Assembly: GCA_026390015.1 (NCBI GenBank) | Contig: JAPLGS010000073.1 | Location: 55,055-92,623, forward strand | Length of the DNA stretch: 37,569 bases | Direction of reading: 5' to 3' | Source of the DNA: Chloroflexota bacterium | Lineage (GTDB): Bacteria; Chloroflexota; Anaerolineae; Anaerolineales; Villigracilaceae | Shown here: piece after piece, positions 3,741 through 26,007 of the stretch | Layout of the letters: the number at the start of each line of letters is the position of its first letter | Numbering within the stretch: the first letter of the stretch is position 1 | Program-made: the position numbers and the translations under genes | Notes under the pieces: model-generated | The model's input: only the letters and a program-made list of their open reading frames with translations | Databases searched by the model: none | Told to the model about the DNA's origin: nothing

Positions 3741-6242
3741 TTACTTTATCGTCACCTGAATGACCGCCGTATCCACCACCTGGTCATTTCTCACTACTTG
3801 CAGCTGAACTGCATACAGTCCACTCAAGCCTTTTGTATCCCACTCAGCCAGAACATCATTTTCAACAGAAGTATTAACATCGCTCCCCAATTGAATCCAT
3901 TCCTGCGGATTCAATCCCTTGCCAACCTGTACGCGATAATAAGAAAACTTTTCACCCGATGCTGTGCCGATGATTTTTATGACGCCGTTCACATCTGCAA
4001 ATAATTCAGGCGCTGTGATATTTGCGATCGGATCCACAGGCGGCGCTTGAATGGCGTCATAAGATGTCGGCGGAATTTTCATTCCAGCGTTAACCGCCCA
4101 ATCACGCGCATTGTCAGGGATGAGCATATACACACGTTTTTCAATTAATTCTGGCGGAGTAAAGACCGTGGCAAGCAGACCTGTTTCGCGGTTTATATCA
4201 AACTCGCGAAATAGATTATCCGCTTGAATGGGTTCACTGCCATTCAAGAAAACTTCACTCACCAAGTTTTGACATTCACTTGTGGGCAGCATTCCCGAAG
4301 GATCACAGACCGTAATTGTGGAAACACCTTGCGGCGCGCTCCAACCATCAGCGGGAGAATCACCTGAAGCAACTTGCATCAACGCATTCCACAAAACAGA
4401 GGGGAATTTTGGAGAAACTGTTTCATTCTCGCTATGCACGCCAGTCCAAGTGACCACCACATGCGAAGGTGTATACCCGACCACCCACGCATCGCGTCCA
4501 TCGGATGTTTGCCCAACCTTCACGCCCGCAGGCCGCCCGACCGCAAGTGAATTCGATTTGCCACGCTCAGTTTCATCACTCAATACATTTGTCATCAAGT
4601 ACGCGAGCGTGGGCGGCAATACAGGTTTTGCCTGCGGCAATGTCCAATCCACCAGCACCGCGTGATCTACACTTTCGACGCGCAAAATAGTGACGGGCAA
4701 AAAATCATCGCGCACAGTTTGTCCAAAATAAATTCCCTGTTTTCCAAACACGCCATACGCGCCTGCAAGTTTTAACATGGAAGTATCTTCGTTCAAATTA
4801 ATTCCAAACGACGATGCAATACTTGTCACATTTTCAATGCCCATTTGCGCCTGCAATATTTCGACCGGCACTTGATAATCATTTGCCAGCGCGGTTCGCA
4901 AACGCATTGGGCCGTGAAATTTGCCGTCAAAGTTTTGGATGATTCCTTCGTTTGGAATATCCCAGGTTAATGAGGCTGGACTCAAGCCTCTGGTGAATCC
5001 TGTCAAATAGACAAATGCATCCAGGCTTGACCCTGAGCTGTGTGCTGTTACGAGTGGAGTTTCCACTCCTTGAACAGTTTCTCCGACCAGCGCCAGCACC
5101 TGACCATTATTCGGATCAAGGATCAGTGCGCTCGCAGATGAATCAGCAAGTGTGATGGCGGGTGGCAGCGAGGGCAGCAATCTTGCAGACTCGCATTTAT
5201 TTTCTGATTCAGTTATTCCGGCCATGCGGCTTGCGTACACTTCCGTTACACATGTGGATTGTTTCTGCAGGCCATAATCCAATGTGCTGATGATGTTCAA
5301 TCCACCGCGCTCGATTCGGTCACGCGGAATTTGCGAGTCTAATTGAGACAAGACCATGTTGACGAAAGCAGGAGCAAGCTTGAGCGGAGTCTGATGCGCT
5401 GATATTATTTCAGGGATTTCTGCCAATGCAGTTGTCGTATCTTTTTTATTTATCATGCCAAGTCTATTTAAAATAAATATTACTTCATGCCCGCGTTGTA
5501 TTGCTTGTTGCGGAGCGTCCAACGGATTGAGCGCCCGCGTTTCACTCGTCGCCGCAAGCATGGCAGACTCGGCCAGAGTCAACTGCTCGGATGATTTGCC
5601 AAAATAAAGCTGCGACGCGGCCTCGACACCAAAGGCATAATTTCCGAAATGCGCGCTGTTGAGATACCACTCTATGACCTGTGTGCGCCCAAACTGTGCG
5701 GTGATCTGCGCGGCAAGAATGCGCTCGCGGATGGCACGCCGAAACGAAGGAGCTTCGTTGTAAGTAATTAATTCGCTGACAAGTTTCTGCGCGATGGTTG
5801 GGTGCGAATTGGGATCGTTGAATTCCTGAATCGAATATCCAGCGTGAGACCAGAAATTCGGGTCTGCAACAGCGATCACTGAATTGATTAAATTTTCTGG
5901 AATGTGCTGTGGATTTTGTTTGTTGATTGGTATATATCGCCGCGTTTTGTCGGTTGGCGAAAAAGTATAAAGCAGTTGCAAACCTGTGCGGTCATAAATG
6001 CGCGTGGGTTGCAGCAAAAGTCCGTTGGGCGGGTTGAGCAGTACCGGCAAAATTTCAACAGAAGGAAGATCGCGCGTAATGTCTGCGTAGGCAAATGCGC
6101 CGAGAATAATTAATGCCGCGAGTAGAAGTGAAAGAACCGTTCCAACAGTGAGTAACGTGCCACGCGTGCGGTTGGAGGCTGCGCGTTGTTTTGCGAGTCG
6201 TCGTTCGCGGCGGGCGCGGAGAATCGGGAGGGTGGAAGGCAT
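3741..6242 (-). CDS. Class A penicillin-binding protein homologue with degenerate active sites
   Basis: 833 residues laid out as a bifunctional PBP: basic cytoplasmic start, one membrane anchor (about 29-53), GT51 glycosyltransferase region (about 75-265), transpeptidase region (about 365-640) and a C-terminal Ig/FN3-like domain (about 740-833). The fold is recognisable from YLNSAHFGNYAFGVEAASQL and DAWVVGYTP. The chemistry seems lost. The GT51 ExxxF motif reads ADPNF, with Ala126 (codon GCA) at the catalytic Glu. SxxK reads SSLD (405-408), SxN reads DYQ (455-457) and KTG reads KVG (575-577). The frame is open over 2.5 kb, which argues for selection as a structural or regulatory pseudoenzyme rather than decay. 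It is the last gene of a run starting at folP, 9 bases after the GNAT gene, with no clear ribosome site. True PBPs are presumably elsewhere. Confidence 0.85.
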   Translation of the reverse strand: MPSTLPILRARRERRLAKQRAASNRTRGTLLTVGTVLSLLLAALIILGAFAYADITRDLPSVEILPVLLNPPNGLLLQPTRIYDRTGLQLLYTFSPTDKTRRYIPINKQNPQHIPENLINSVIAVADPNFWSHAGYSIQEFNDPNSHPTIAQKLVSELITYNEAPSFRRAIRERILAAQITAQFGRTQVIEWYLNSAHFGNYAFGVEAASQLYFGKSSEQLTLAESAMLAATSETRALNPLDAPQQAIQRGHEVIFILNRLGMINKKDTTTALAEIPEIISAHQTPLKLAPAFVNMVLSQLDSQIPRDRIERGGLNIISTLDYGLQKQSTCVTEVYASRMAGITESENKCESARLLPSLPPAITLADSSASALILDPNNGQVLALVGETVQGVETPLVTAHSSGSSLDAFVYLTGFTRGLSPASLTWDIPNEGIIQNFDGKFHGPMRLRTALANDYQVPVEILQAQMGIENVTSIASSFGINLNEDTSMLKLAGAYGVFGKQGIYFGQTVRDDFLPVTILRVESVDHAVLVDWTLPQAKPVLPPTLAYLMTNVLSDETERGKSNSLAVGRPAGVKVGQTSDGRDAWVVGYTPSHVVVTWTGVHSENETVSPKFPSVLWNALMQVASGDSPADGWSAPQGVSTITVCDPSGMLPTSECQNLVSEVFLNGSEPIQADNLFREFDINRETGLLATVFTPPELIEKRVYMLIPDNARDWAVNAGMKIPPTSYDAIQAPPVDPIANITAPELFADVNGVIKIIGTASGEKFSYYRVQVGKGLNPQEWIQLGSDVNTSVENDVLAEWDTKGLSGLYAVQLQVVRNDQVVDTAVIQVTIK

Positions 6243-6251
6243 ATGTCTATT

Positions 6252-7253
6252 TTACAGCGACTCTACAGCCACTTCTCTGCCGGGGCGCAGTTCCTTTTCA
6301 AACATGTTGCTTTGATTGTGAATATGCATACCCGCCTTTTCGTACAGCCGCAATGCACCTGTCAGGCTGTTTGCATCAACGCCGAGTTCGACATGCATCT
6401 GGCCGCGCCGATGGAACTCACCAAAGGCATGTTGCAGGAGTGTCAGTCCCAATCCATGTTTACGCCATGCTCGGCGCACGCCAAGAATATTGACATACCC
6501 TGCTTGATGATCGCTCATTGACTCGGATCGGCACAGGCAATACCCGGCAATTTCATTACCAGCCCATGCAACGAACCATAAACTGGGATCATATTGAGGA
6601 TGACCTTCGAGATTATGTTTGAAATGTTCCAACTCGCTTTCAAACGGTTCTTCAACATGACCAAAATGATCGCGGAAGGCTTCCCGATGGGCGCTATAAA
6701 CTGCCCGCAGATTCTCTGATGTGTATGGACGCAATTCAATTCTTTCAGGCCACGTCGGCATGGGTGGAATGGAATCCATGTCAATTCGCATGGTGTAATA
6801 TGAGCGGACGTAAGTCCAATTCCTTTCCTTAAATAATTGCTGCGCAGCCTGATTTGTACTGACAGAAACCACGTGAGGGGCAAGGCGCAAATCAGCAGGC
6901 AGAATATCGATCACTTGACGGCAACGTTCCTCGCCCCATTCTGTAATATATGTGCCCAATCCTTTTCCCATAAAATCGGGATGCACACATGCCCAAATAA
7001 ACGGGTGAACAGGTAAGTTACTATTCACCCACACTTCCACATAAGCCGCCAATTTCCCGTCGAAGGTGAAAACTAATTGTATGTCGGTAGCAGGGTTAAA
7101 ACGGGGTGATTGCCATGCATTGCGAGTTTCTTCAGCGTTAATATCTTCCACACCGGCTGTCGCAAGCGCATTGATCTTAAATAGCTCTGCGGCGATATCA
7201 ACATCGTCAAGTGTTGCCGAACGGGACTTAAAGCCTTCTGGTAAAGTATTCAT
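6252..7253 (-). CDS. Two-domain GNAT acetyltransferase
   Basis: A cytosolic protein of 333 residues made of two tandem GNAT folds. The first acetyl-CoA loop is visible in CVHPDFMGKGLGTYI and the second in RRAWRKHGLGLTLLQHAF, followed by LGVDANSLTGALRLYEKAGM, a classic GNAT ending. The substrate cannot be deduced; tandem GNAT proteins include mycothiol synthase-like and antibiotic-modifying enzymes as well as many uncharacterised ones. The ATG at 7253 was chosen over a start at 7304 because GAGGTGAG lies four bases upstream of it, while the longer start would overlap the preceding gene. It follows the zinc-ribbon gene by 43 bases and precedes the PBP homologue by 9 bases, suggesting cotranscription. 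Confidence 0.85.
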   Translation of the reverse strand: MNTLPEGFKSRSATLDDVDIAAELFKINALATAGVEDINAEETRNAWQSPRFNPATDIQLVFTFDGKLAAYVEVWVNSNLPVHPFIWACVHPDFMGKGLGTYITEWGEERCRQVIDILPADLRLAPHVVSVSTNQAAQQLFKERNWTYVRSYYTMRIDMDSIPPMPTWPERIELRPYTSENLRAVYSAHREAFRDHFGHVEEPFESELEHFKHNLEGHPQYDPSLWFVAWAGNEIAGYCLCRSESMSDHQAGYVNILGVRRAWRKHGLGLTLLQHAFGEFHRRGQMHVELGVDANSLTGALRLYEKAGMHIHNQSNMFEKELRPGREVAVESL

Positions 7254-7296
7254 AAAACTCACCTCATTTTTTTTCGGATAACAGTAAGCGTGAAAC

Positions 7297-8631
7297 TCAA
7301 TCATTCAACAGATCAGAAAGAAAACCCATCAATCCACCTTTTTCAGATTCTTCCTGTTTTTGTGTCTTATCCGGAACGTCGCTGGCCACAACTCCGCTTT
7401 GACCATTGACCAGTACCAAATGCTTGCGCCCGTCAAATGGAAGTTCTGTCATCCACACGGGCAGCAAATTAAGTTTGAAGGACTCCACTACAAGATTTGA
7501 AGATGAGGTATGCACTATATTCATACCATTCAGCAAATGTGGAAGTTTGTCCTTGTAACGCGCATACGCCTGACTGCGAGCGTCCAAAGAAGCATCCGCC
7601 ATGGGAACATCATAAATTTCAGCGGGCCAGCTTGCGAGGAAGCGCGGATCATACGGCTGGATGGTCTTCATGTTAAAAGCAGGAATCAACTTCAAGAAAA
7701 CAGCGGACAGTTTTCGGGAGGCGGGCAGCGGCAGGTCATCCACCATAATGGGATATTGGTCTGTGATGCGGGTAACTTTTTTCTCGCCGCGTTTCGCGAA
7801 TAGTTGATCTTCATATTCGATCATTTCCCCTGTGTAATCAATGACGCCGCCAATGTCAAAAGTCCAGAGCGGAAGATATAGCCCGCGCGGCAGTCCCACC
7901 TTTTTTTCTGGTTTGATGTTGTTACTTTCAACCCAATCGACTAATAATTTTGTAGCTTGTTTTTGGTCGAACGCGTGCGGAATAATTCCATCGGGCGCGA
8001 GCAGGTCTTTTGTTTTTTCAAGATTGATCACATGCGGAGAATCACAATACACACACGAAGCCGAGATCTGCAGGGGTGGCAAAATAAATTCAGCGCCGCA
8101 GCCGTTGCAATGAAAGACTTGTTCCTGCAGCGGCTTGCCATGTCCGCGAGAAGTTGCCATGGCAATGATGAAATCTTTCTCGTCTGCATATTGTTGGGTG
8201 TTCGCGCCAACAACCTGGTTGCGTGAACAATAATCGCAGACGAGTGTTTGGCCGTCTGGTGCAAAGGCCATGCGTCCGCCGCATTTGGGACACATGAATC
8301 TATCAGCATTCACCCGACGCAATCCTTCAGGCGCGGCGGGTAAGTTATCAGGATCGATCACTTCATCTGCTTTAAGTTTCCCATCCAGAATGGCGAGCGA
8401 ACGGCGTGCCCGCGCGTGACGCAGGTCATGTGAAAGACAATTTTCCAAGGCTTTGCGTTTTTCAAGCGGGTCAACCGTGACTTCTCCCATCCAAAACCAT
8501 GCTTCCGCGAGCACATCGTGCGAGCTGGTCATATAAATGGCGCGGTCAAGATAGCGGCGCGCGGATTCTTGATTACCCGATTTCGCTTCGATGATTCCAG
8601 AACGGAGAAGGTCTTTTGAATAATCTTCCAT
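7297..8631 (-). CDS. TPR and double zinc-ribbon protein of unknown function
   Basis: 444 residues. The first 90 are helical and TPR-like (AKSGNQESARRYLDRAIY, AEAWFWMGE). Two four-cysteine zinc ribbons follow: C114/C117 with C132/C135, and C175/C178 with C193/C196. The C-terminal half (about 215-420) is a beta-rich domain with a hydrophobic LPRGLYLPLWTFDIGG segment; no catalytic motif is evident. No signal peptide is present, so it is probably cytosolic. Similar TPR-zinc-ribbon proteins occur in Chloroflexota and other lineages without a known role. Its start follows the folP stop by one base, so translation is probably coupled to folP. Function unknown; the zinc binding is inferred from cysteine spacing. 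Confidence 0.75.
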   Translation of the reverse strand: MEDYSKDLLRSGIIEAKSGNQESARRYLDRAIYMTSSHDVLAEAWFWMGEVTVDPLEKRKALENCLSHDLRHARARRSLAILDGKLKADEVIDPDNLPAAPEGLRRVNADRFMCPKCGGRMAFAPDGQTLVCDYCSRNQVVGANTQQYADEKDFIIAMATSRGHGKPLQEQVFHCNGCGAEFILPPLQISASCVYCDSPHVINLEKTKDLLAPDGIIPHAFDQKQATKLLVDWVESNNIKPEKKVGLPRGLYLPLWTFDIGGVIDYTGEMIEYEDQLFAKRGEKKVTRITDQYPIMVDDLPLPASRKLSAVFLKLIPAFNMKTIQPYDPRFLASWPAEIYDVPMADASLDARSQAYARYKDKLPHLLNGMNIVHTSSSNLVVESFKLNLLPVWMTELPFDGRKHLVLVNGQSGVVASDVPDKTQKQEESEKGGLMGFLSDLLND

Positions 8632-18567: not shown

Positions 18568-19515
18568 ATGCCTGCCACCCCTACGAGAGACAGAGTCTCC
18601 GCCCAAACAGAATCGCCTCCATTGCGCCGCCCGGATTGGATCAAGGTGCGCGCTCCGTCTGGCGAAACCTTTGAACGCCTGCAAGTGTTGATGCGCTCTA
18701 AAGAACTGCATACCGTCTGCGAAGAAGCGATGTGCCCGAATCTCGGCGAATGCTGGGGAAGTGGCACCGCAACTTTTTTGATGCTCGGTGATGTATGCAC
18801 GCGCACCTGCGCCTTTTGCGATATCAAACACGGCAAGCCCGCGCTCATGGATTGGGGCGAAGCTGAGCGCGTGGCGCAAGCCGTGAAATCAATGGAGTTG
18901 AAACACGCGGTCATCACATCGGTGAACCGCGATGAACGTCGTGATGGCGGCGCGCCGATCTTTGCAATGGTCATTCGCCGAATTCGTGAAGTGCTGCGCG
19001 GTTGTTCGATCGAAGTACTGATCCCCGATTTCAAAGGTTCAGTGGAAGCGCTGAAAATTGTCATGGACGCGCGCCCTGAAATTTTGAATCATAATGTCGA
19101 AACCGTGCCGCGTTTGTTCAAGTCTGTTCAGCCGCAGGATAATTATGAATGGGCAGCTGCGACATTATCGAATGCAAAAAAACTTGATCCCGATGTGCTG
19201 ACGAAATCGGGCATCATGCTTGGGCTCGGCGAAACGATGGACGAAGTCAAACAAGTGATGCGTGACCAGCGCAGTTGGGGTGTGGACATTCTTACCATCG
19301 GCCAATATCTGCAGCCGAGCAAGAAGCATTTGGCAATGGAACGCTATTACACGATGGAAGAATTCGCTGAACTCAAAGCCTTCGGAATGGAGATCGGCTT
19401 CAAGTGGGTCGAGTCGAATCCACTGGTGCGGTCGTCGTATCACGCCGCAGATCAAGTCCGCGCGTTGAGTGTGGTGCATCGAAAGTTGTATGGGGAAAGC
19501 GCCAGTGATCAGTAA
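18568..19515 (+). CDS. lipA: Lipoyl synthase
   Basis: 315 residues, a radical SAM enzyme that inserts two sulfurs into octanoyl groups on lipoyl domains. Both iron-sulfur sites are seen: the auxiliary cluster Cys51/Cys56/Cys62 ([12 protein letters not shown]) and the radical SAM CxxxCxxC at Cys77/Cys81/Cys84 (CTRTCAFC). The C-terminal RSSY serine ligand is in [19 protein letters not shown] lies upstream of the ATG. The last residues (GESASDQ) come from a short-period repeat that follows the conserved tail, and a second copy of the tail, ending LYGDGQ, lies at 21264-21309, downstream of an inserted cassette. lipB is not nearby. Confidence 0.95.
19461..19496 (+). repeat. Direct repeat, copy 1: 3' end of lipA
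   Basis: 36 bases, 34 identical to 21264-21299. This copy is in frame as the lipA C-terminus ([12 protein letters not shown]). Similarity extends loosely into the CAGTGA-type repeats that follow both copies. Confidence 0.9.
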
Positions 19516-19532
19516 TTGGTAATCGGAACGAA

Positions 19533-20327
19533 ATGACAACAGATAAACTCACGCCGGAATTCGAGATATTTCAAGGGGAACTGAAATCTTTTATCGTGCG
19601 AATGACTGCCAGTGTTCAAGATGCTGAAGACATTGTTCAGGAAACTTATATCAAGGCCCATGCAAAGCTGAACACCTTTCGCGGCGAATCATCCTTGAAG
19701 ACATGGGTCTTTAGCATTGCATCCAATCTTGCCAGGGATCTGCTGCGGTCAAAGAAGAGATGGCCTGAAACTGTTACAGATATTTGCAGGGAGGAGTCGC
19801 TGGGCAATCCTCAATTTTTTCAGGAAGCCTTGCAGATCAGACAGACATCGCCGCAGGGGAATTTCGAGATCAAGGAACACATCGCTTTATGTTTTACCTG
19901 TGTTTCCAAATCGCTTCCACTTGAACAGCAGCTTGCCTTGCTTCTAAAGGAAGTGTACGGTTTCTCAATGAAGGAAATTGCCAGTATCCTTAACCAGACA
20001 GAGGCAATGGTGAAATATTATCTGCATACAAGCCGCAGCAGGATGATCGAGGTTTTCGACCAGCGCTGTTCCCTGATCAACAAGCAGGGGATTTGTCACC
20101 AATGCACAGAGTTGAACGGCATCTTTAATCCCAAACAAAAAGCGCAGGAGGAACTGGTCAAGATCGAGATGGCAAAAGATGCTGAAAACAAAAGCAAAGA
20201 GGAATTGTTCGCCTTGCGGATGAAGATTTTGCAGGAACTCGATCCTTTTGAATCTGGCGCGGCGGAATTGCAGCTGCATCATTTGGAATATAACAGGCAG
20301 GTCATGGAAAAATACCTGGGGGAATAA
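19533..20327 (+). CDS. ECF-type RNA polymerase sigma factor with Cys-rich C-terminal extension
   Basis: 264 residues. Sigma region 2 (about 10-75) shows DAEDIVQETYIKAHAKLNTFRGESSLKTWVFSIASNLARDLLR and region 4 (about 115-175) shows LPLEQQLALLLKEVYGFSMKEIASIL with the helix-turn-helix TEAMVKYYLHTSRSRM. After region 4 comes an extension of about 90 residues beginning CSLINKQGICHQCTELNGIFNP. Cysteines occur at 120 and 123 (CFTC) and 179, 188 and 191, possibly a zinc or redox site. No anti-sigma gene is adjacent, so the extension may regulate activity, as in ECF41 and ECF42 groups (inference). It begins 17 bases after lipA with no strong ribosome site and leads a three-gene cassette with a SRPBCC and a 133-aa protein. 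Confidence 0.88.
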   Translation: MTTDKLTPEFEIFQGELKSFIVRMTASVQDAEDIVQETYIKAHAKLNTFRGESSLKTWVFSIASNLARDLLRSKKRWPETVTDICREESLGNPQFFQEALQIRQTSPQGNFEIKEHIALCFTCVSKSLPLEQQLALLLKEVYGFSMKEIASILNQTEAMVKYYLHTSRSRMIEVFDQRCSLINKQGICHQCTELNGIFNPKQKAQEELVKIEMAKDAENKSKEELFALRMKILQELDPFESGAAELQLHHLEYNRQVMEKYLGE

Positions 20328-20380
20328 AGCCTATCATTTTCGGTCTCCCGCTCGTCTAAAGAAGAAAAGGAGTTTTAGAA

Positions 20381-20845
20381 ATGAATCAGCAGACAAATCC
20401 AAAAGCAGTTACAGAAAAGAGAATGTTCAGCCGGGAAACAACTGTCAGCGTGAATATTGAGGCGGACCCGTCCATTGTGTGGGCATTGTTGACCCACGCA
20501 TCCGATATCCCAAGATGGAATTCGACTGTGGTTTCGTTGACAGGCGAGATCAGGGAAGGTGGGGCGATTGAGCTCAAGTCCACACTGGATGAAAAACGGG
20601 TATTTAAATTGAAGGTGAAAGAATTCGTGCCTGAAAAAAGGCTTGTGTGGGGAGATGGCATGGGAAACCGGGTCTATTCGCTTGATAAAAAATCAAACGG
20701 CGTGCTTTTTAGCATGTCCGAAAAGATCGGAGGTCCGCTCTTCCCTTTGTTTGCGAAAATGATCCCATCATTTGACAGATCTTTTGAACAATTTGCAGCA
20801 GATCTAAAGAAGGAAGCCGAAACCATTCAAGGTTCCAAAAAGTGA
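20381..20845 (+). CDS. SRPBCC (START/Bet v 1-like) domain protein
   Basis: 154 residues. The fold is read from VSVNIEADPSIVWALLTHASDIPRWNSTVVSLTGEIREGG, the typical start of polyketide-cyclase or SRPBCC proteins, then FKLKVKEFVPEKRLVWGDG and the closing helix FDRSFEQFAADLKKEAE. These proteins form a deep hydrophobic cavity for lipids or small molecules; the ligand cannot be predicted. AAAAGGAG precedes the ATG. It lies 53 bases after the sigma gene and 16 bases before the next, so all three probably share a transcript. No membrane segment. Confidence 0.85.
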   Translation: MNQQTNPKAVTEKRMFSRETTVSVNIEADPSIVWALLTHASDIPRWNSTVVSLTGEIREGGAIELKSTLDEKRVFKLKVKEFVPEKRLVWGDGMGNRVYSLDKKSNGVLFSMSEKIGGPLFPLFAKMIPSFDRSFEQFAADLKKEAETIQGSKK

Positions 20846-20861
20846 CCTAAAGGAGAATATT

Positions 20862-21263
20862 ATGGAAAAGAGAACGAAGGACAACCCTTGGAAATTAAAA
20901 ACGCCTCCCCAGACATCGGACTATGAAATGTATGTAGACACGAAGGATGGGAAGGAAATTATCGTCTGCACGGTCGGCACAACCGTTTTGCATTATGACT
21001 ATCGTTCTCTCGCGGACTTGCATGCCATGTTAAAAAAGCACGGTGATTGGATGGAATTGGGCAGCAAGGATGAGAAACAGGAAACTGTCGAAGGGACTGT
21101 GGAACATTGGGCGCGTTCACCGAAAAACCCGATCGGCGGCTGGTATGGACTCAAGAAGGGGTTCAAGGGGCGCTTTGCCATGTATATTCCACCGCTCATG
21201 GAAGTGCTGGGACTGGCAGAAGTGGAACATAATGCGCGCAATAATCGGATGCGGGCAAAATAA
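20862..21263 (+). CDS. 133-aa conserved-looking protein of the sigma cassette, function unknown
   Basis: 133 residues, soluble, with a YEMYVDTKDGKEIIVCTVGTTVLHYDYRSLADLHAMLKKHGDWMELG start and a GGWYGLKKGFKGRFAMYIPPLMEVLGLAEVEHN end. No catalytic motif is seen and no family is recognised with confidence; Trp, Tyr and Gly are frequent, as in ligand-binding folds. AAAGGAG sits six bases upstream of the ATG. Its TAA stop is immediately followed by the second copy of the lipA tail, so it is the right boundary of the cassette. A role downstream of, or as cofactor for, the sigma factor is inference only. Confidence 0.75.
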   Translation: MEKRTKDNPWKLKTPPQTSDYEMYVDTKDGKEIIVCTVGTTVLHYDYRSLADLHAMLKKHGDWMELGSKDEKQETVEGTVEHWARSPKNPIGGWYGLKKGFKGRFAMYIPPLMEVLGLAEVEHNARNNRMRAK

Positions 21264-21299
21264 CGCGTTGAGCGTGGTGCATCGCAAGTTGTATGGGGA
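21264..21299 (+). repeat. Direct repeat, copy 2: detached 3' end of lipA
   Basis: 34 of 36 bases match 19461-19496. In the lipA frame it reads [14 protein letters not shown] and then stop at 21307-21309, so it still looks like a native lipA ending. It is preceded directly by the stop codon of the 133-aa gene. Confidence 0.9.
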
Positions 21300-21303
21300 T
21301 GGA

Positions 21304-21338
21304 CAGTGAAAAGTGAGTAGTGGACAGTAATCAGTAGA
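21304..21338 (+). repeat. Degenerate heptamer array
   Basis: Five consecutive 7-mers with shared form CAGTNAN: CAGTGAA, AAGTGAG, TAGTGGA, CAGTAAT, CAGTAGA. A related array (CAGTGAT, CAGTAAT, TGGTAAT) follows lipA copy 1 at about 19503-19523. Confidence 0.65.
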
Positions 21339-21374
21339 TCCCTTCTGCCGTTTGGCGGGAGGGATTTTTATTTT
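21338..21374 (+). terminator. Rho-independent terminator upstream of the GT-C gene
   Basis: A 12-bp stem with three G-T pairs (21338-21349 with 21354-21365), loop GTTT, then TTTTATTTT. It would originally have ended the lipA transcript and now ends the sigma cassette. Confidence 0.85.
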
Positions 21375-21443
21375 GGAGTATGATTGCCCGAATCTCCCTT
21401 AACCTGAAAGGCAATCATGTCACGTAATCGAATCATTCTCGTC
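21365..21443 (+). repeat. Direct repeat, copy A: MFS leader and first nine codons
   Basis: 79 bases, 77 identical to 24477-24555. It contains the -10 box, the leader hairpin and codons for MSRNRIILV. The identity stops abruptly inside the coding region. Confidence 0.93.
21379..21384 (+). promoter_or_regulatory. -10 box and leader hairpin of the GT-C gene (duplicated)
   Basis: TATGAT, followed by a leader in which GATTGCC (21382-21388) can pair with GGCAATC (21410-21416), partly covering the AAAGG ribosome site just before the ATG at 21417. An identical arrangement precedes the MFS gene. Confidence 0.45.
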
Positions 21444-23612
21444 TCACTCATATTAAGTGCCAGTTACTTTCTAAGCATTGGGCACCATACCATCAATTTC
21501 TGGGAAAAACCTGGGCGGCTGATGCTGGGACTGTCGCTAATTTGCATACCTCTTTTAACGTGGATAGTATTTCTCGTTATCAATCAAATTCAACCACAAC
21601 TTAATAAACCTGGCAGAAAACAATTCCTTGTTTTCATCATTCCGGCGCTCTTGATCAGCGCTGCCATTACCTGGCGTTACTACAGTATGCCCGCAACTTT
21701 TCACACAATTATTATAGACCCAGTTGTCACACAAAACCAAAAAGTAGAAATAATAGAGATCAAAGCAAACGGCAGGATCATTCCACAAAACGAAAAAAAT
21801 GCTTTGGATTATGACTGGCAGGTGAAAGATGGCGTATTGTTTGCAACAAGTAAGTCACGACCAATAAAGATCATATTTAAAACGGAAATTAACGCGGCTG
21901 TACGATTATTATTTCTTGCCTCGCCTCAAGGCGGGAAAGCCGTGATCGATCTTGAAAAAGAACAAATTGAAGTGGATTTGAAAAATCCCGAGAATCGCCA
22001 GCAAACTACCACTATTTATATCCAGTCATCTCGTGGAATTCCGAACTGGTTGTTCATTCCAATGCTGGTTATGGTGGATATTATTACGATCGCCAGTTTT
22101 TTTCTCTTTATTTATTTAATTCAGAAAGCAGGGGAAAAAAGAATGGCAATGTTAGCACCAACCACAGTCTCCCTTCTTAATCACCGTGTTAACATTGCGA
22201 TCCCGCTATTTATTTCAAGCGTTTTGCATATACTTAACTCACTTGCTGCACCGCTAATTCTTGATGTAGACAGCATATCTCACCTTCAGGGAGCAATTCA
22301 CTTGCTGGAATTCGGGAATCTCGATGGGGTTTCAATGATTCGAGGTCCCGGGTCAACTTTTTTATTCGCGCCATTTCTCTTTTTATTTGGACGTAATCCA
22401 TGGGGAATAAAAATGCTCCTGCACCTATTGGCAATTGCCTGTGTCCCGGTCAGCTATCGGATCAGCTGGCAGCTTTGTAAAAACCAAACCGTCGCTTTTG
22501 TCTGTGGACTTGTTGTGGCGCTCTCGCCTGACTTGTTCTTCTATTCCAATTTCGTGATGTCTGACTTGCCGAATCTGTTCTTTGTGCTGGTATTTTGCAC
22601 CTTGCTGATCTCTGCATTGGAGACCTTCGAGTTTCGTTGGGTGATTTCCGCCATGCTCTTGGCCTCATTTTCCACGTTATTTCGTTCTGAAAATATTACC
22701 CTGCTCTTGATCGGGGCAGGGGCTCTTTTAGCCTCGTATGTCTCGCAATGGAAAGCAAAAGGCTTTGCAAGACCAATACGTGATTTAAGTATGTTTGGCC
22801 TGGTTATTATTTTCGCAGTCTTGCCACTCTTGTGGTGGTCTGGCCAAAACCAAAGGATATATGGCTTCTTTGGGTTGAGTAACTATGCAGGTGAAGTATT
22901 TTACGATGGCTGGGTATATTTTGGAGACGCCAGTAAACTAGCCTATACCGATAAAAACTCACCCGCGGTACAAAAAATACAGGCAACTATCGATCGATAT
23001 CCAATTATCATAACTGATAAAAGTGGAGCGCCCACCGGGTGGGAGATTTACCCAAGTTTGATAAAAGCAGGATATACAACGGAACAGGGTTTTGATTTAC
23101 TCAAACAAGCCGCTATAGACTCGATCAAAAAAGATTGGAGCCTTACATATCAATTGTTACTGATCAAGATTAGAGCAGGCCTGCGCCCTGAAACAACTAA
23201 CATGCATACCCTTGCTCTGCCATCTGAAAATTATCAAACGCAGAAGTTGGGATACTTTGATCAGGAGAATCTAATCATTCCAGCTTTAATTCTTGCGCAA
23301 AGAACCGGCTATACATATATTCAAAGATGGTACGATTCTTATTACCCCTGGTGGGTATATTTATGCATAGTTGCAATGTTCTTTTGCCTGTATCGCTCTC
23401 CTGGAACGGTTTGGCTGACCCTTATATTAATTATAGGAACGCGTATCTTTATCCCGAACATCATGGGACTATCCCATTGGCGATATACCCTGGCAGGGTT
23501 AATGCCGCTACAAATCCTTGCGATCGATTGGCTCGCAGGACTGATCAAAGGCGGAGAATCTCTTATTTATCATAAAAATACCATCATAGCCCCCAGTGGC
23601 CCTTCTCGTTAA
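21417..23612 (+). CDS. GT-C type polytopic membrane protein (ArnT/PMT-like glycosyltransferase)
   Basis: 731 residues. After a short tail (MSRNRIILV, shared with the MFS protein) come three hydrophobic segments. A soluble beta domain (about 100-210) sits between the third of these and about ten further membrane segments. The first loop of the core holds LILDVDSISHLQGA, an acidic motif where GT-C enzymes bind a lipid-linked sugar donor. SPDLFFYSNFVMSDLPNLFF, LFRSENITLL and LPLLWWSGQN fit the ArnT/PMT or oligosaccharyl-type family. Donor and acceptor are unknown; cell-surface glycan or lipid modification is inferred. The region is visibly more AT-rich than its neighbours. Its promoter, leader and first nine codons are a copy of the MFS gene's 5' end, so expression may be borrowed. 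Confidence 0.75.
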   Translation: MSRNRIILVSLILSASYFLSIGHHTINFWEKPGRLMLGLSLICIPLLTWIVFLVINQIQPQLNKPGRKQFLVFIIPALLISAAITWRYYSMPATFHTIIIDPVVTQNQKVEIIEIKANGRIIPQNEKNALDYDWQVKDGVLFATSKSRPIKIIFKTEINAAVRLLFLASPQGGKAVIDLEKEQIEVDLKNPENRQQTTTIYIQSSRGIPNWLFIPMLVMVDIITIASFFLFIYLIQKAGEKRMAMLAPTTVSLLNHRVNIAIPLFISSVLHILNSLAAPLILDVDSISHLQGAIHLLEFGNLDGVSMIRGPGSTFLFAPFLFLFGRNPWGIKMLLHLLAIACVPVSYRISWQLCKNQTVAFVCGLVVALSPDLFFYSNFVMSDLPNLFFVLVFCTLLISALETFEFRWVISAMLLASFSTLFRSENITLLLIGAGALLASYVSQWKAKGFARPIRDLSMFGLVIIFAVLPLLWWSGQNQRIYGFFGLSNYAGEVFYDGWVYFGDASKLAYTDKNSPAVQKIQATIDRYPIIITDKSGAPTGWEIYPSLIKAGYTTEQGFDLLKQAAIDSIKKDWSLTYQLLLIKIRAGLRPETTNMHTLALPSENYQTQKLGYFDQENLIIPALILAQRTGYTYIQRWYDSYYPWWVYLCIVAMFFCLYRSPGTVWLTLILIIGTRIFIPNIMGLSHWRYTLAGLMPLQILAIDWLAGLIKGGESLIYHKNTIIAPSGPSR

Positions 23613-23630
23613 ATAAAAACAGAGACTGTC

Positions 23631-23644
23631 AAGCCAGCTACTGT
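23631..23644 (+). repeat. Short direct repeat left of the MNT/HEPN pair
   Basis: AAGCCAGCTACTGT matches 24464-24477 in 13 of 14 bases. The two copies bracket the toxin-antitoxin genes. Confidence 0.5.
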
Positions 23645-23716
23645 GAAATTAATCAACGAGTTTACTTGTTGTATGGCATGGCCGAAGAAGGAATAAAAAC
23701 TTTACAAGGAAAGGGG

Positions 23717-23722
23717 TAAAAT
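23717..23722 (+). promoter_or_regulatory. -10 box of the MNT gene (leaderless)
   Basis: TAAAAT ends six bases before the ATG at 23729, implying a leaderless transcript. AAGG sequences lie upstream of the box, too far to act on this start. Confidence 0.45.
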
Positions 23723-23728
23723 TATCTC

Positions 23729-24028
23729 ATGAGTACGATTACCTATCCTTTTAGCCTTCCCAAACTTATTGACATTTGCCGCCGAAACGATGTTTCGATG
23801 GTGGGCGTCTTTGGTTCGATGGTGCGCGGAGAAGCGAAAAAAAATAGCGACATTGACTTGATCGTCCGATTTTCCAAACGCAAAAGTTTGTTGTCCATGG
23901 TTCGGTTTGAACGTGAGTTGGCGGAAACGCTTGGGCGGAAAGTTGATCTACTAACAGAAGCTTTCATCAGCCCGTACATGCGCGAACGGGTTTTGCAGGA
24001 AATGCAGGTGGTGTATGGCTCACGATGA
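23729..24028 (+). CDS. MNT-domain nucleotidyltransferase, MntA-type antitoxin
   Basis: 99 residues with the minimal nucleotidyltransferase motif GSX10DXD intact: G29-S30 (VFGSMVRGEA) and D41/D43 (SDIDLIVRF). LGRKVDLLTEAFISPYMRERVLQEM completes the fold. In type VII MNT/HEPN systems this protein transfers AMP groups onto the HEPN toxin and silences its RNase. The downstream HEPN gene overlaps it by 14 bases, the normal operon layout. Flanking 14-bp repeats and the AT-rich surroundings suggest acquisition by transfer. The antitoxin frame looks functional although its partner is frameshifted. Confidence 0.9.
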   Translation: MSTITYPFSLPKLIDICRRNDVSMVGVFGSMVRGEAKKNSDIDLIVRFSKRKSLLSMVRFERELAETLGRKVDLLTEAFISPYMRERVLQEMQVVYGSR

Positions 24029-24364
24029 AACCCTCTATTTGCGCCATGTTCTCGATGCAATGGATACAGTCGAAGAATATTTACTGGGCGTGAATGAAGA
24101 AAAATTCAAAAATACGCGCTTGATTCAGGATGGAGTCATTCGGCAAATTGAATCATCGGGGAAGCCGTTCGGCATGTTTCCAAAAACACCCGCAAATCGT
24201 ACCCGGAAATTCCGTGGCAAGATGTGGCAGGGATGCGCGATAAACTCATTCATGGTTATTTCGGTGTAGATATTGAAAAAGTATGGGATACAGCCCGTGA
24301 TGACCTGCCCATTTTACGGGAACAGGTGATGGGAATTCTAAAAGACTTCGGACAAAACATCTAA
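24015..24364 (+). pseudogene. HEPN toxin (HepT-type), frameshifted
   Basis: The first frame gives MAHDETLYLRHVLDAMDTVE through FKNTRLIQDGVIRQIE, a typical DUF86 HEPN start. At about 24151-24153 one A seems missing (ATTGAATC where ATT-GAA-ATC is expected). Reading on in the +1-corrected frame gives IIGEAVRHVSKNTRKSYPEI, then DVAGMRDKLIHGYFGVDIEK and LREQVMGILKDFGQNI, with a stop at 24362. The catalytic RX4HXY motif (R-DKLI-H-G-Y, 24236-24259) lies only in the shifted frame. The uninterrupted first frame ends after 84 residues without it. A natural loss of toxin, a sequencing error, or slippage would all look alike. Confidence 0.85.
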
Positions 24365-24381
24365 TTCAAGAACAAAAAAAT

Positions 24382-24405
24382 GCTCTTTTTCAAGAGCGTT
24401 ATTTG
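24382..24405. terminator. Possible terminator after the HEPN gene
   Basis: GCTCTT (24382-24387) and AAGAGC (24392-24397) pair with a 4-base loop; A run on the left and GTTATTTG on the right. Modest. Confidence 0.4.
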
Positions 24406-24463
24406 TAGCTAAAAAACTATTCCAATCTCAAACGGGATGAGACAGGTTGATTCTGACATGCAA

Positions 24464-24477
24464 AAGCCAGCTTCTGT
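24464..24477 (+). repeat. Short direct repeat right of the MNT/HEPN pair
   Basis: AAGCCAGCTTCTGT, 13 of 14 bases as at 23631-23644, directly abutting copy B of the MFS leader repeat. Confidence 0.5.
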
Positions 24478-24555
24478 TTTTATTTTGGAGTATGATTGCC
24501 CGAACTTCCCTTAACCTGAAAGGCAATCATGTCACGTAATCGAATCATTCTCGTC
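24477..24555 (+). repeat. Direct repeat, copy B: native MFS leader and first nine codons
   Basis: 77 of 79 bases match 21365-21443. Here the coding part continues into the MFS gene (-10 TATGAT at 24491-24496). Confidence 0.93.
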
Positions 24556-26007
24556 ACCATTGGTATCATGCTCAGCCTGTTCCTCGCTTCGATGGAAGCG
24601 ACTGTCGTTGCAACCGCCATGCCGACCATCGTCGGTCAGCTGGGCGGGCTGGAGCATTACTCGTGGGTATTTTCAGCCTTCATGCTGGCTTCCACCACAT
24701 CTGTTCCGCTGTATGGAAAACTCTCGGATATTTATGGCCGCCGCCGAATCTATGTGATTGCGATGGCGCTCTTTCTTGTCGGCTCGGTCATGAGCGGACT
24801 TGCAATCAACATGACGCAACTCATCTTCGCGCGCGCTTTGCAGGGACTCGGCGCGGGCGGAATCCAACCGTTGGCATTTATCCTGATCGGAGAGATGTTC
24901 AGCTTGCAGCAGCGCGCCAAAATGCAGGGACTTTTCTCGGGCGTGTGGGGCTTCTCTTCCATTGCGGGGCCGCTGCTCGGCGGATTCATTGTGGATAAAT
25001 TTTCGTGGCATTGGGTCTTTTACATCAACGTACTTCCGGGTCTACTTGCTGCGGCGCTGGTCGCTCTCGCTTGGCAGGAGCAGGCTCAAAGTCACGAACG
25101 ACCGAAAGTGGATTATCTCGGCGCGGTCTTGCTGACATCCAGTGTTGTCTCATTATTGCTTGGGCTGATGGAGTTCGGCTCCATTAATAGTTGGTCATTG
25201 CTCGCGCTCGCCCTCGCGCTCTTCATTGCGTTGATATGGGTCGAGAGCCGCGCCGCTGACCCGATCCTGCCGCTGCCCCTTTTCCGCGACCGGTTATTTC
25301 TCACCGCAGTTACGCACGGGGTCTTCACAGGTTGGGCGATGTTTGGCAGTGTCTCGTTCATACCGCTCTTTGTGCAATCGGTGTTCGGCACCAGCGCCAC
25401 GCAGGCCGGCATCACGATCACGCCGATGCTGTTAGGATGGGTGAGCGCCAGCATTATTGGCATGAGGTTGATCATGACGGTCGGGTATCGCAAGCTGGGG
25501 CTGGTCGGAACAACGGTCTTCGTGACGGGCGCATTCCTGATGACGCTGATCGGCGCGGGCTCGAGCCAGATCATCATGATGATCTTTGTAACCATAATGG
25601 GCGTGGGCATGGGGCTTTCGATCCCATCGTTTTTGGTGGCGGTGCAGACGACCGTGGAGCGGCGCAATCTCGGCACAGCCACTTCGATGCTTCAATTCAG
25701 CCGTTCGATCGGAGGGACTCTGGGAGTGAGTGTGATGGGCGCCGCCTTGAGCATTCGACTCGCCTCGAACTTGAGCGCCTCAAGTCTTGACCCGAAGCTG
25801 GTGACTCAAATCCTCGATCCTTTACCCGGCTCGCAGATCGTTGTGGATGCCGGCGTGCGTCTCGCAATGGCGAATGCAATTCATCTTGTCTTTGTGATCG
25901 CATTTATATCCGCTGCGCTTGGTTTATTGTCGGTCTTCTTCACTCCGCAGCGGGAACTAAAGGAAAAGCCTGTTGAAAGTGAATCTTTTCCACTGAGCAT
26001 GGATTGA
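24529..26007 (+). CDS. MFS multidrug exporter, DHA2 (14-TM) family
   Basis: 492 residues with about 14 membrane segments. SLFLASMEATVVATAMPTIV is the TM1 signature of EmrB/QacA-type exporters, GKLSDIYGRRRIYV is the A-motif in loop 2-3, and FARALQGLGAGGIQPLAF with GFSSIAGPLLGG covers the C-motif. Such proteins expel drugs or metabolites by proton exchange; the substrate is unknown. The tail is short and hydrophilic. The leader carries a hairpin over the AAAGG ribosome site and a TATGAT box. It is one of the two host genes between which the accessory island sits. A strong terminator follows. Confidence 0.93.
   Translation: MSRNRIILVTIGIMLSLFLASMEATVVATAMPTIVGQLGGLEHYSWVFSAFMLASTTSVPLYGKLSDIYGRRRIYVIAMALFLVGSVMSGLAINMTQLIFARALQGLGAGGIQPLAFILIGEMFSLQQRAKMQGLFSGVWGFSSIAGPLLGGFIVDKFSWHWVFYINVLPGLLAAALVALAWQEQAQSHERPKVDYLGAVLLTSSVVSLLLGLMEFGSINSWSLLALALALFIALIWVESRAADPILPLPLFRDRLFLTAVTHGVFTGWAMFGSVSFIPLFVQSVFGTSATQAGITITPMLLGWVSASIIGMRLIMTVGYRKLGLVGTTVFVTGAFLMTLIGAGSSQIIMMIFVTIMGVGMGLSIPSFLVAVQTTVERRNLGTATSMLQFSRSIGGTLGVSVMGAALSIRLASNLSASSLDPKLVTQILDPLPGSQIVVDAGVRLAMANAIHLVFVIAFISAALGLLSVFFTPQRELKEKPVESESFPLSMD

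What the first reader, a model, noticed from the sequence alone, without database searches (positions are those of the whole stretch)
19461..21299. ECF sigma cassette inserted next to lipA with a duplicated lipA 3' end
A three-gene block (ECF sigma, SRPBCC, 133-aa protein) of about 1.8 kb lies between two copies of the lipA 3' terminus (34 of 36 bases identical, both in the lipA frame; copy 2 starts right after the stop of the last cassette gene). Restoring a host gene's end at the far side is the hallmark of elements that integrate into gene 3' ends, yet no integrase is present. Either a cargo-only element or recombination between flanking short repeats is suggested.
Basis: partly seen in the sequence, partly recalled or inferred. 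Interest (0 to 1): 0.75.

Follow-up and report, generated by a model that had tools for sequence, protein, structure and literature searches.

The report
Displaced lipA ends flank gene cassettes
In one family of bacteria, new genes keep landing just behind the housekeeping gene lipA, and each landing seems to push a leftover copy of lipA's tail downstream, so that gene cassettes build up there much as in an integron or an rhs locus but with no integrase found beside them.

Summary
A 36-nt piece of the lipA 3' end (19461-19496) recurs at 21264-21299 (34/36, both differences synonymous). Copy 2 abuts the stop of the third block gene and runs through an in-frame stop to a strong terminator (21336-21367).

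It is not a lone three-gene element. A tail profile finds relicts downstream of lipA, on lipA's strand, in 11 of 42 genus genomes examined (plus G046, added later), and in four genomes of three other genera. They follow unrelated cargo: ECF-sigma block, NADAR-like, VOC, RelE-like, DUF4160-DUF2442, DinD-like, MFS, Dps-like genes. Tail duplication hits 5 of 28 lipA genes against 4 of 958 others (8 with paralogues). G019 is an empty site: what follows its lipA (1465 nt, 91%) follows the block in G044. Neither a recombinase gene nor a genus-type attC was found at the lipA loci.

Best reading: recombination anchored in the conserved lipA end brings a donor end plus cargo and displaces the resident end, as proposed for rhs tips and Vibrio T6SS arrays. 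The ECF block itself is an old resident (12 of 13 genus carriers have it near lipA). A trans-acting recombinase is not excluded: 9 of 19 relict edges cluster.

The parts
18568..19515 (+). lipA (lipoyl synthase), the anchor gene
   Evidence: ORF; protein matches in 38 of 41 genomes searched, 36 of them strong
19461..19496 (+). lipA 3' tail, copy 1 (part of the working gene)
   Evidence: direct repeat D1
19533..20327 (+). ECF sigma factor gene
   Evidence: PF04542 3.8e-15, PF08281 6.1e-10
20381..20845 (+). SRPBCC-type protein gene
   Evidence: PF10604 2.4e-8
20862..21263 (+). DUF6855 protein gene (the 133-aa protein)
   Evidence: PF21619 3.4e-69
21264..21299 (+). lipA 3' tail, copy 2 (displaced relict), in the lipA frame with TGA at 21307-21309
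   Evidence: 34/36 to copy 1, both differences synonymous; tail profile 7.9e-11
21336..21367 (+). intrinsic-terminator-like hairpin; its core CCCTTCTGCCGTTTGGCGGGAGGG lies 10 nt after the lipA stop in the empty-site genome G019
   Evidence: 14-pair stem, longest in 19300-24600
21365..21444 (+). copy of the MFS 5' leader and first codons, in front of the GT gene
   Evidence: 77/80 to 24477-24556
21417..23612 (+). PMT_2 glycosyltransferase-like gene whose reading frame starts with the MFS start codons (MSRNRIILV)
   Evidence: absent between relict and MFS in contig G008:C400
24477..24556 (+). MFS 5' leader and first codons (working copy)
24529..26007 (+). MFS transporter gene; in G001, G051 and G071 its homologue is itself followed by a lipA-tail relict
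   Evidence: PF07690 4.9e-53

Best explanation
The 3' end of lipA is a recurrent anchor for gene gain. Incoming DNA that carries a lipA 3' end from another lineage followed by accessory gene(s) recombines with the resident lipA end. The chimeric lipA stays functional, the cargo now follows it, and the resident end with its stop, and often its terminator, is displaced to the far side of the cargo as a relict. Repeats of this give arrays of cargo separated by displaced lipA ends. Once a relict exists, the cargo has lipA homology on both sides, so ordinary homologous recombination can move it between strains or remove it precisely. Shown: the duplicated ends, their restriction to the lipA locus and lipA's strand among the copies found, variable cargo, an empty site, synonymous excess between the two ends, no recombinase gene found at the loci. 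Inferred: homologous recombination as the agent, DNA uptake as the route, a circular or linear intermediate.
For: (1) Tail relicts downstream of lipA in 11 of 42 genus genomes (in G042, G043, G051 and G063 only weak hits, E 0.001-0.01), plus G046, G330, G312, G250, G345; no minus-strand hit better than E 0.19. (2) At least eight different cargoes. (3) Left edges spread over profile positions 1 to 30 of 63, and identity in G058 runs 117 nt back from the stop. (4) Relict against own lipA, 17 of 19 relicts: 40 synonymous and 37 non-synonymous differences, 42 of 77 at third positions, 30% synonymous expected (p = 4e-5; 36 of 73, p = 3.8e-4 without the repeat rows G008 and G063). So many of the paired ends seem to have diverged in working lipA genes before being joined. 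(5) Empty site G019 against G044. (6) Same cargo after lipA in different genera: VOC in G250 and G043 (85% identical), DinD-like in G345 and G024 (85%), ECF block in G341. (7) No match to tyrosine- or serine-recombinase profiles in 2974 ORFs of 52 lipA loci, 648 kb. (8) ComEC present in G000.
Against: Relict left edges cluster: 9 of 19 lie at profile positions 20-24. The gap from cargo stop to relict is -5 to 34 nt in 15 of 19 cases (58-71 nt in three; G058 has no intact gene before it), tighter than random illegitimate joints would give. Recombination signal inside lipA is weak (PHI-like, 37 of 1000 permutations). Non-synonymous differences (37 of 77) show that many relicts have also decayed, and the test rows are not independent. 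Homology of 36 nt is near the lower limit for RecA (recalled). No intermediate or transfer was seen. Other genes show tail-only duplication at low rate (4 of 958).
Confidence: 0.56

Rival explanations
1. Site-specific insertion: lipA's 3' end is an attachment site, and cargo-only cassettes are inserted by a recombinase encoded elsewhere (a tyrosine integrase or the integron integrase common in this genus).
For: Gene-3'-end restoration is the classical sign (recalled); one site and strand; 9 of 19 relict left edges at profile positions 20-24, at GCGTTGAGY/GTTGAGY, which fits the integron core consensus GTTRRRY (recalled); 34 of 57 genus genomes have an integron integrase over cut-off; all 12 genomes searched have tyrosine recombinases somewhere.
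Against: 10 of 19 edges lie elsewhere and most of these (9) reach further left into lipA, up to 117 nt before the stop in G058. No PF00589 or PF00239 hit within 25 kb of lipA in the 12 genomes searched; nearest 27 kb (G053) and about 50 kb (G000). No profile match in lipA loci. Integron integrase over cut-off in only 5 of the 12 relict genomes, against 34 of 57 overall. Genus attC of 125-132 bp not seen at lipA loci: 5 hits in 1.14 Mb scanned, all 61-87 nt. An attC insertion would not duplicate the lipA end (recalled mechanism).
Confidence: 0.18
2. Local duplication: lipA's end was duplicated within the genome (tandem duplication or slippage at the AGTGA-type spacer repeats) and the copy decayed.
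For: In G051 and G022 spacer and, in G051, terminator are very alike on both sides; spacer repeats follow lipA in many genomes.
Against: Excess of synonymous differences between the two ends and different lipA C-termini, e.g. in G250 and G066; unrelated genes lie between the copies; empty site G019/G044.
Confidence: 0.12
3. Old vertical block with a functional tail: the ECF block has long followed lipA here, and the tail-terminator copy is kept because it works (terminator, 3' RNA).
For: Block downstream of lipA in 12 of 13 genus carriers; lipA and block trees broadly alike; relict identical in G000 and G008:C209.
Against: Relicts follow unrelated genes; no tail profile hit behind the block in G044, G047, G048, G055 and G062; AU test rejects a shared tree; the block is elsewhere in G018.
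Confidence: 0.1

Closest known systems
rhs C-terminal displacement (Jackson et al. 2009, PMC2935791, abstract and passages seen)
   Same: Incoming end displaces the resident end downstream; strings of displaced fragments that keep pieces of the conserved core of varying length as direct repeats; homologous recombination with circular intermediates proposed
   Different: Anchor is a housekeeping enzyme gene; the displaced pieces are short stretches of the conserved lipA end itself; cargo genes are unrelated to the anchor
Vibrio cholerae T6SS immunity-gene arrays, homology-facilitated illegitimate recombination proposed (Kirchberger et al. 2017, PMC5361080, abstract and passages seen)
   Same: One-sided homologous anchor, non-homologous cargo, older pieces shifted back, array growth without evidence for an integrase
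   Different: There the retained items are immunity genes; here mixed accessory cargo and non-coding relicts of a core gene
HGT hotspots without mobile elements (Oliveira and colleagues 2017, PMC5635113, abstract and passages seen)
   Same: Variable content beside a core gene, no recognisable mobile elements, recombination at flanking core genes proposed, link to transformable species
   Different: That model is double recombination at both flanks; here scars of the core-gene end remain
Integrons
   Same: Cassette-like genes added at one fixed end; small accessory and toxin-antitoxin-like cargo
   Different: No integrase at the locus, no genus-type attC found, target end duplicated

Membership tests
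Displacement arrays (rhs / T6SS type) | Displaced copies of the anchor gene's end downstream, same strand, as direct repeats of varying length | tested here: met
Displacement arrays (rhs / T6SS type) | Displaced ends derive from other alleles rather than self-duplication | tested here: met
   40 of 77 differences synonymous against 30% expected, p = 4e-5; 3.8e-4 after dropping repeats; rows not independent
Displacement arrays (rhs / T6SS type) | Anchor is a polymorphic toxin or effector gene with a variable C-terminus | tested here: not met
   anchor is lipA with a conserved end
Displacement arrays (rhs / T6SS type) | Circular or linear intermediate recombining through homology | not testable with these tools
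   needs live cells or reads
Integrative element in a gene 3' end | Host gene end restored, old end on the far side | tested here: met
Integrative element in a gene 3' end | Integrase in the element | tested here: not met
   PF00589 and PF00239 in 12 genomes; home-made profiles on 2974 ORFs of 52 loci
Integrative element in a gene 3' end | Constant crossover core | tested here: inconclusive
   9 of 19 left edges at profile positions 20-24, the others from 1 to 30
Integron | intI beside the array | tested here: not met
Integron | attC sites at cassette ends | tested here: not met
   own simple finder, which found 125-132 bp attC-like sites near genus integrases
MGE-free HGT hotspot | Variable content next to a core gene, no mobile elements | tested here: met
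   variable content; recombinases; transposases were not searched for systematically
MGE-free HGT hotspot | Raised recombination in the flanking core gene | tested here: inconclusive
   PHI-like 37 of 1000; no comparison with other core genes

The most novel reading that the evidence does not exclude
The lipA 3' end is a true attachment site for a family of integrase-less gene cassettes moved in trans by an unidentified recombinase, an integron-like capture platform built on a housekeeping gene and shared by at least four genera.
Probability: 0.15. Interest if true: 0.85.

Novelty: new variant of a known kind. Interest (0 to 1): 0.55.

Why it matters
It shows what look like scars of many gene gains at a single core gene with no mobile-element machinery found beside it. 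If the reading holds, the displaced lipA ends record the anchor, the junction and, where several lie in a row, the order of events, which makes the open question of how hotspots without mobile elements take up genes directly readable. It also suggests that displacement arrays, described for toxin loci, can form at an ordinary metabolic gene.

Tried and rejected
Discrete three-gene mobile element: rejected because the block is long resident at lipA and the tails follow other genes too. Integron cassette insertion at GTTGAGY: considered because of the integrons in the genus, disfavoured by relicts that reach further left and by absence of genus-type attC, not excluded. Target-site duplication by a transposase: rejected, lengths vary and are too long (recalled lengths). 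Neutral in-genome duplication: disfavoured by the synonymous excess. Terminator-promoter unit as a genome-wide repeat: a 41-nt pattern with up to 3 mismatches hit 3 of 57 genus genomes (G044, G022, G008), on their lipA contigs. PHI-like test of lipA: weak. Literature: lipoyl synthase with attB, integration site, integrase (487 papers hold 3 of 4 terms, 12 listed, none of these with the phrase 'lipoyl synthase'); Anaerolineae with integron and gene cassettes (1 paper, listing only); integron cassettes with attG (8 papers, listing only); Chloroflexota with natural competence (1 paper, listing only). None of this proves absence from print.

Biases and corrections: the 42 genus genomes are those whose lipA contig I could reach, so diverged tails are under-represented and some downstream stretches are only about 1 kb; 15 of 57 are missing. 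G046 was fetched because it carries DUF6855, so I give 11 of 42 first. The four other-genus genomes were fetched because the pattern showed two hits. Loci under 8 kb (e.g. G008) were left out. The control stretches were picked arbitrarily, not at random. One search covers 17 of 19 relicts (not G046, G345), and its G043 row aligned only 15 nt; its gap-free subset (22 synonymous, 12 not) was picked after the fact. G000/G008 share an event, G042/G063 likewise. The G053 relict was seen by eye only and is not counted. The IntI-only profile missed a distant PF00589 gene in the control (G042:C1:3001570), so I added it to a broader profile; the control hits are its own seed proteins, so its sensitivity is not independently tested. 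On checking I counted the edge clustering (9 of 19), moved the site-specific rival from 0.16 to 0.18, the best reading from 0.58 to 0.56 and the novel case from 0.13 to 0.15.
Full report
Observation. lipA runs 18568-19515. The 36 nt at 19461-19496 recur at 21264-21299 with 34 identities. Copy 2 starts at the base after the stop of the third gene, stays in the lipA frame, ends at TGA 21307-21309, and is followed by an AGTGA-type spacer and a 14-pair terminator-like hairpin, 21336-21367, the longest in the stretch scanned. The genes between are an ECF sigma factor, an SRPBCC protein and a DUF6855 protein. Both differences between the copies are synonymous. A mirror-image case lies next door: the 5' leader and first nine codons of the MFS gene (24477-24556) recur before the GT gene (21365-21444), 77 of 80, so the GT frame begins with MFS codons.

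Is it special? I tested the last 66 nt of 986 genes (window, lipA loci of at least 8 kb, arbitrarily chosen stretches of G000, G042 and G066) for a same-strand match within 10 kb downstream. lipA: 5 of 28. Other genes: 8 of 958, of which 4 are paralogue-like; Fisher p = 1.5e-6 without those, 1.4e-5 with them. Opposite strand: 2 of 986. Two of the four tail-only cases lie in the same lipA locus of G022, so the process may not be confined to lipA itself.

Relatives. A pattern search in 57 genus genomes and a tail profile on the lipA loci of 42 of them found relicts downstream of lipA in 11: G000, G008, G001, G022, G042, G043, G051, G058, G063, G066, G071. In G042, G043, G051 and G063 the hits are weak (E 0.001-0.01). 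G046 adds one, 7.2 kb from lipA, but was fetched for its DUF6855 gene. G053 has a degenerate one seen by eye, not counted. All counted relicts are on lipA's strand; the best minus-strand hit has E 0.19. In a family-wide pattern search (86 of 152 genomes have any hit) G330 and G312 (g18), G250 (g23) and G345 (g19) also have a second copy, 0.5 to 0.9 kb downstream of lipA; searches confirm them. By pattern, second copies lie on the lipA contig, except G008:C400, where the copy sits at the contig edge behind a DUF6855 end (a variant of the same locus), and G365, whose two hits lie on two contigs (not followed up).

Cargo. What precedes the relict differs: the ECF block (G000, G008, G066); a lipoprotein-like gene and smaller ORFs (G022); ABC genes, then MFS (G001); NADAR-like (G042, G063); VOC (G043, G250); DUF4160 + DUF2442 (G330); RelE-like + a second small gene (G312); DinD-like (G345); MFS (G051, G071); several genes ending with a Dps-like one (G046). 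The same cargo after lipA appears in different genera: VOC in g23 and g1 (85% identical), DinD-like in g19 and g1 (85%), ECF block in g18 (G341: DUF6855 94%, ECF 87%, lipA 87% to the window's) and g1. In G024 and G341 no relict was detected.

Empty site. In G019 the terminator core CCCTTCTGCCGTTTGGCGGGAGGG lies 10 nt after the lipA stop, then a promoter-like stretch and a lipoprotein-like gene. In G044 the same 1465 nt (91%), which begin 64 nt after the lipA stop in G019, follow the DUF6855 gene, and the terminator part matches separately. So the block is present or absent between lipA and what follows it. This does not tell gain from loss: recombination between two tails would also remove a block cleanly. 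G019's contig ends 1.5 kb downstream of lipA. DUF6855 occurs in 13 of 57 genus genomes, 12 downstream of lipA and one (G018) elsewhere without a tail. In the family it is 21 of 152: by contig position 14 near lipA, 5 on other contigs than the lipA hit, 2 undetermined. The block tree resembles the lipA tree, but each data set rejects the other's tree (AU 0.0012 and 0.00096, 13 taxa). So the block is an old resident with some exchange, not a fresh insertion in this genome.

Direction and source. Over 17 of the 19 relicts, relict against own lipA gives 40 synonymous and 37 non-synonymous differences, 42 of 77 at third positions; 30% synonymous would be expected (p = 4e-5; 36 of 73, p = 3.8e-4 after dropping G008 and G063). 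Some relicts end in another lipA C-terminus: GDGQ in G000 against GESASDQ, GEVLPVISK in G250 against GESVHQNQ. So many pairs of ends seem to have diverged inside working lipA genes and were then brought together, which favours lateral replacement over in-genome duplication. The non-synonymous share shows later decay in others.

Junctions. Relict left edges, in profile positions of 63, are 21, 21, 30, 3, 14, 16, 24, 16, 24, 1, 24, 11, 20, 24, 6, 21, 23, 7, 13; in G058 the identity runs 117 nt back from the stop. Nine of 19 lie at 20-24. These are local-alignment edges and approximate. On the cargo side the join lies -5 to 34 nt from the stop of the preceding ORF in 15 of 19, 58-71 nt in three, and in G058 the relict follows a truncated MFS start. 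The simple homology model explains neither the clustering nor the tightness; deletion of useless sequence and selection for a nearby stop or terminator are possible but untested.

Machinery. PF00589 and PF00239 hits in 12 genomes (11 of the 12 relict genomes and G053) all lie away from lipA; nearest 27 kb in G053 and about 50 kb in G000. An IntI profile matched none of 2867 ORFs at lipA loci but also missed a distant family member in the control stretches; a broader tyrosine profile and a serine profile matched none of 2974 ORFs in 52 loci, 648 kb, with only their own seeds as control hits. Integrons are common in the genus: 34 of 57 genomes have an integrase over cut-off, but only 5 of the 12 relict genomes (G001, G042, G043, G051, G063), and not G000. 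attC-like sites of 125-132 bp were found near integrases in L126, L127 and L128 and none of that kind at lipA loci. G000 has ComEC.

Mechanism. The best reading is displacement by recombination: donor lipA end plus cargo recombines in the conserved lipA end, the resident end moves behind the cargo. Jackson et al. 2009 (PMC2935791, abstract and passages) propose this for rhs tips through circles that carry core fragments of variable length; Kirchberger et al. 2017 (PMC5361080, abstract and passages) suggest homology-facilitated illegitimate recombination for T6SS immunity arrays; Oliveira and colleagues 2017 (PMC5635113, abstract and passages) report that many hotspots lack mobile elements and link them to recombination at flanking core genes. 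Small variable segments (PMC2884548, passages) are a looser parallel. It works like these systems; it is not an rhs or T6SS locus, because the anchor is a housekeeping gene. Shown: duplication, preference for lipA, cargo variety, allelic difference, empty site, no recombinase gene found locally. Inferred: the recombination pathway, uptake, intermediates.

Verdict. Real, recurrent and informative; a new variant of a known kind of gene-gain scar.

Noticed in passing
window 21365-21444 and 24477-24556: 5' leader and first nine codons of the MFS gene duplicated in front of the GT gene; G008 contig C400 has the relict and terminator followed directly by MFS, without GT, so this insertion has an empty counterpart in a strain variant.
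   Followed up: partly
L126, L127, L128 (G053, G069, G016): Integrons are common in this genus (34 of 57 genomes with integrase over cut-off) with long 125-132 bp attC-like sites.
   Followed up: partly
window 24015-24370: HepT-like gene (name recalled) behind the nucleotidyltransferase gene (23729-24028) looks frame-broken: its conserved part seems to continue in another frame.
   Followed up: no
L058 (G022) 5181-8312: Restriction-modification-like gene (by eye) whose last coding stretch recurs exactly over 44 nt about 0.5 kb downstream, in the same hotspot.
   Followed up: no
L066 (G044) 2808, 4681, 5306; L058 (G022) 3724, 4416, 5153: Near-identical terminator units, mostly followed by a promoter-like stretch (TTGTCA-N17-TATAGT type), between successive genes behind lipA: a second kind of repeated junction.
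   Followed up: partly
after lipA in many genomes, e.g. window 21300-21335: AGTGATCAGTAATCAGT-type spacer repeats follow lipA stops; role unknown, could favour recombination or slippage.
   Followed up: no
G000:C62:20577-23260: Two serine recombinase genes on the same contig, about 50 kb upstream of lipA.
   Followed up: no
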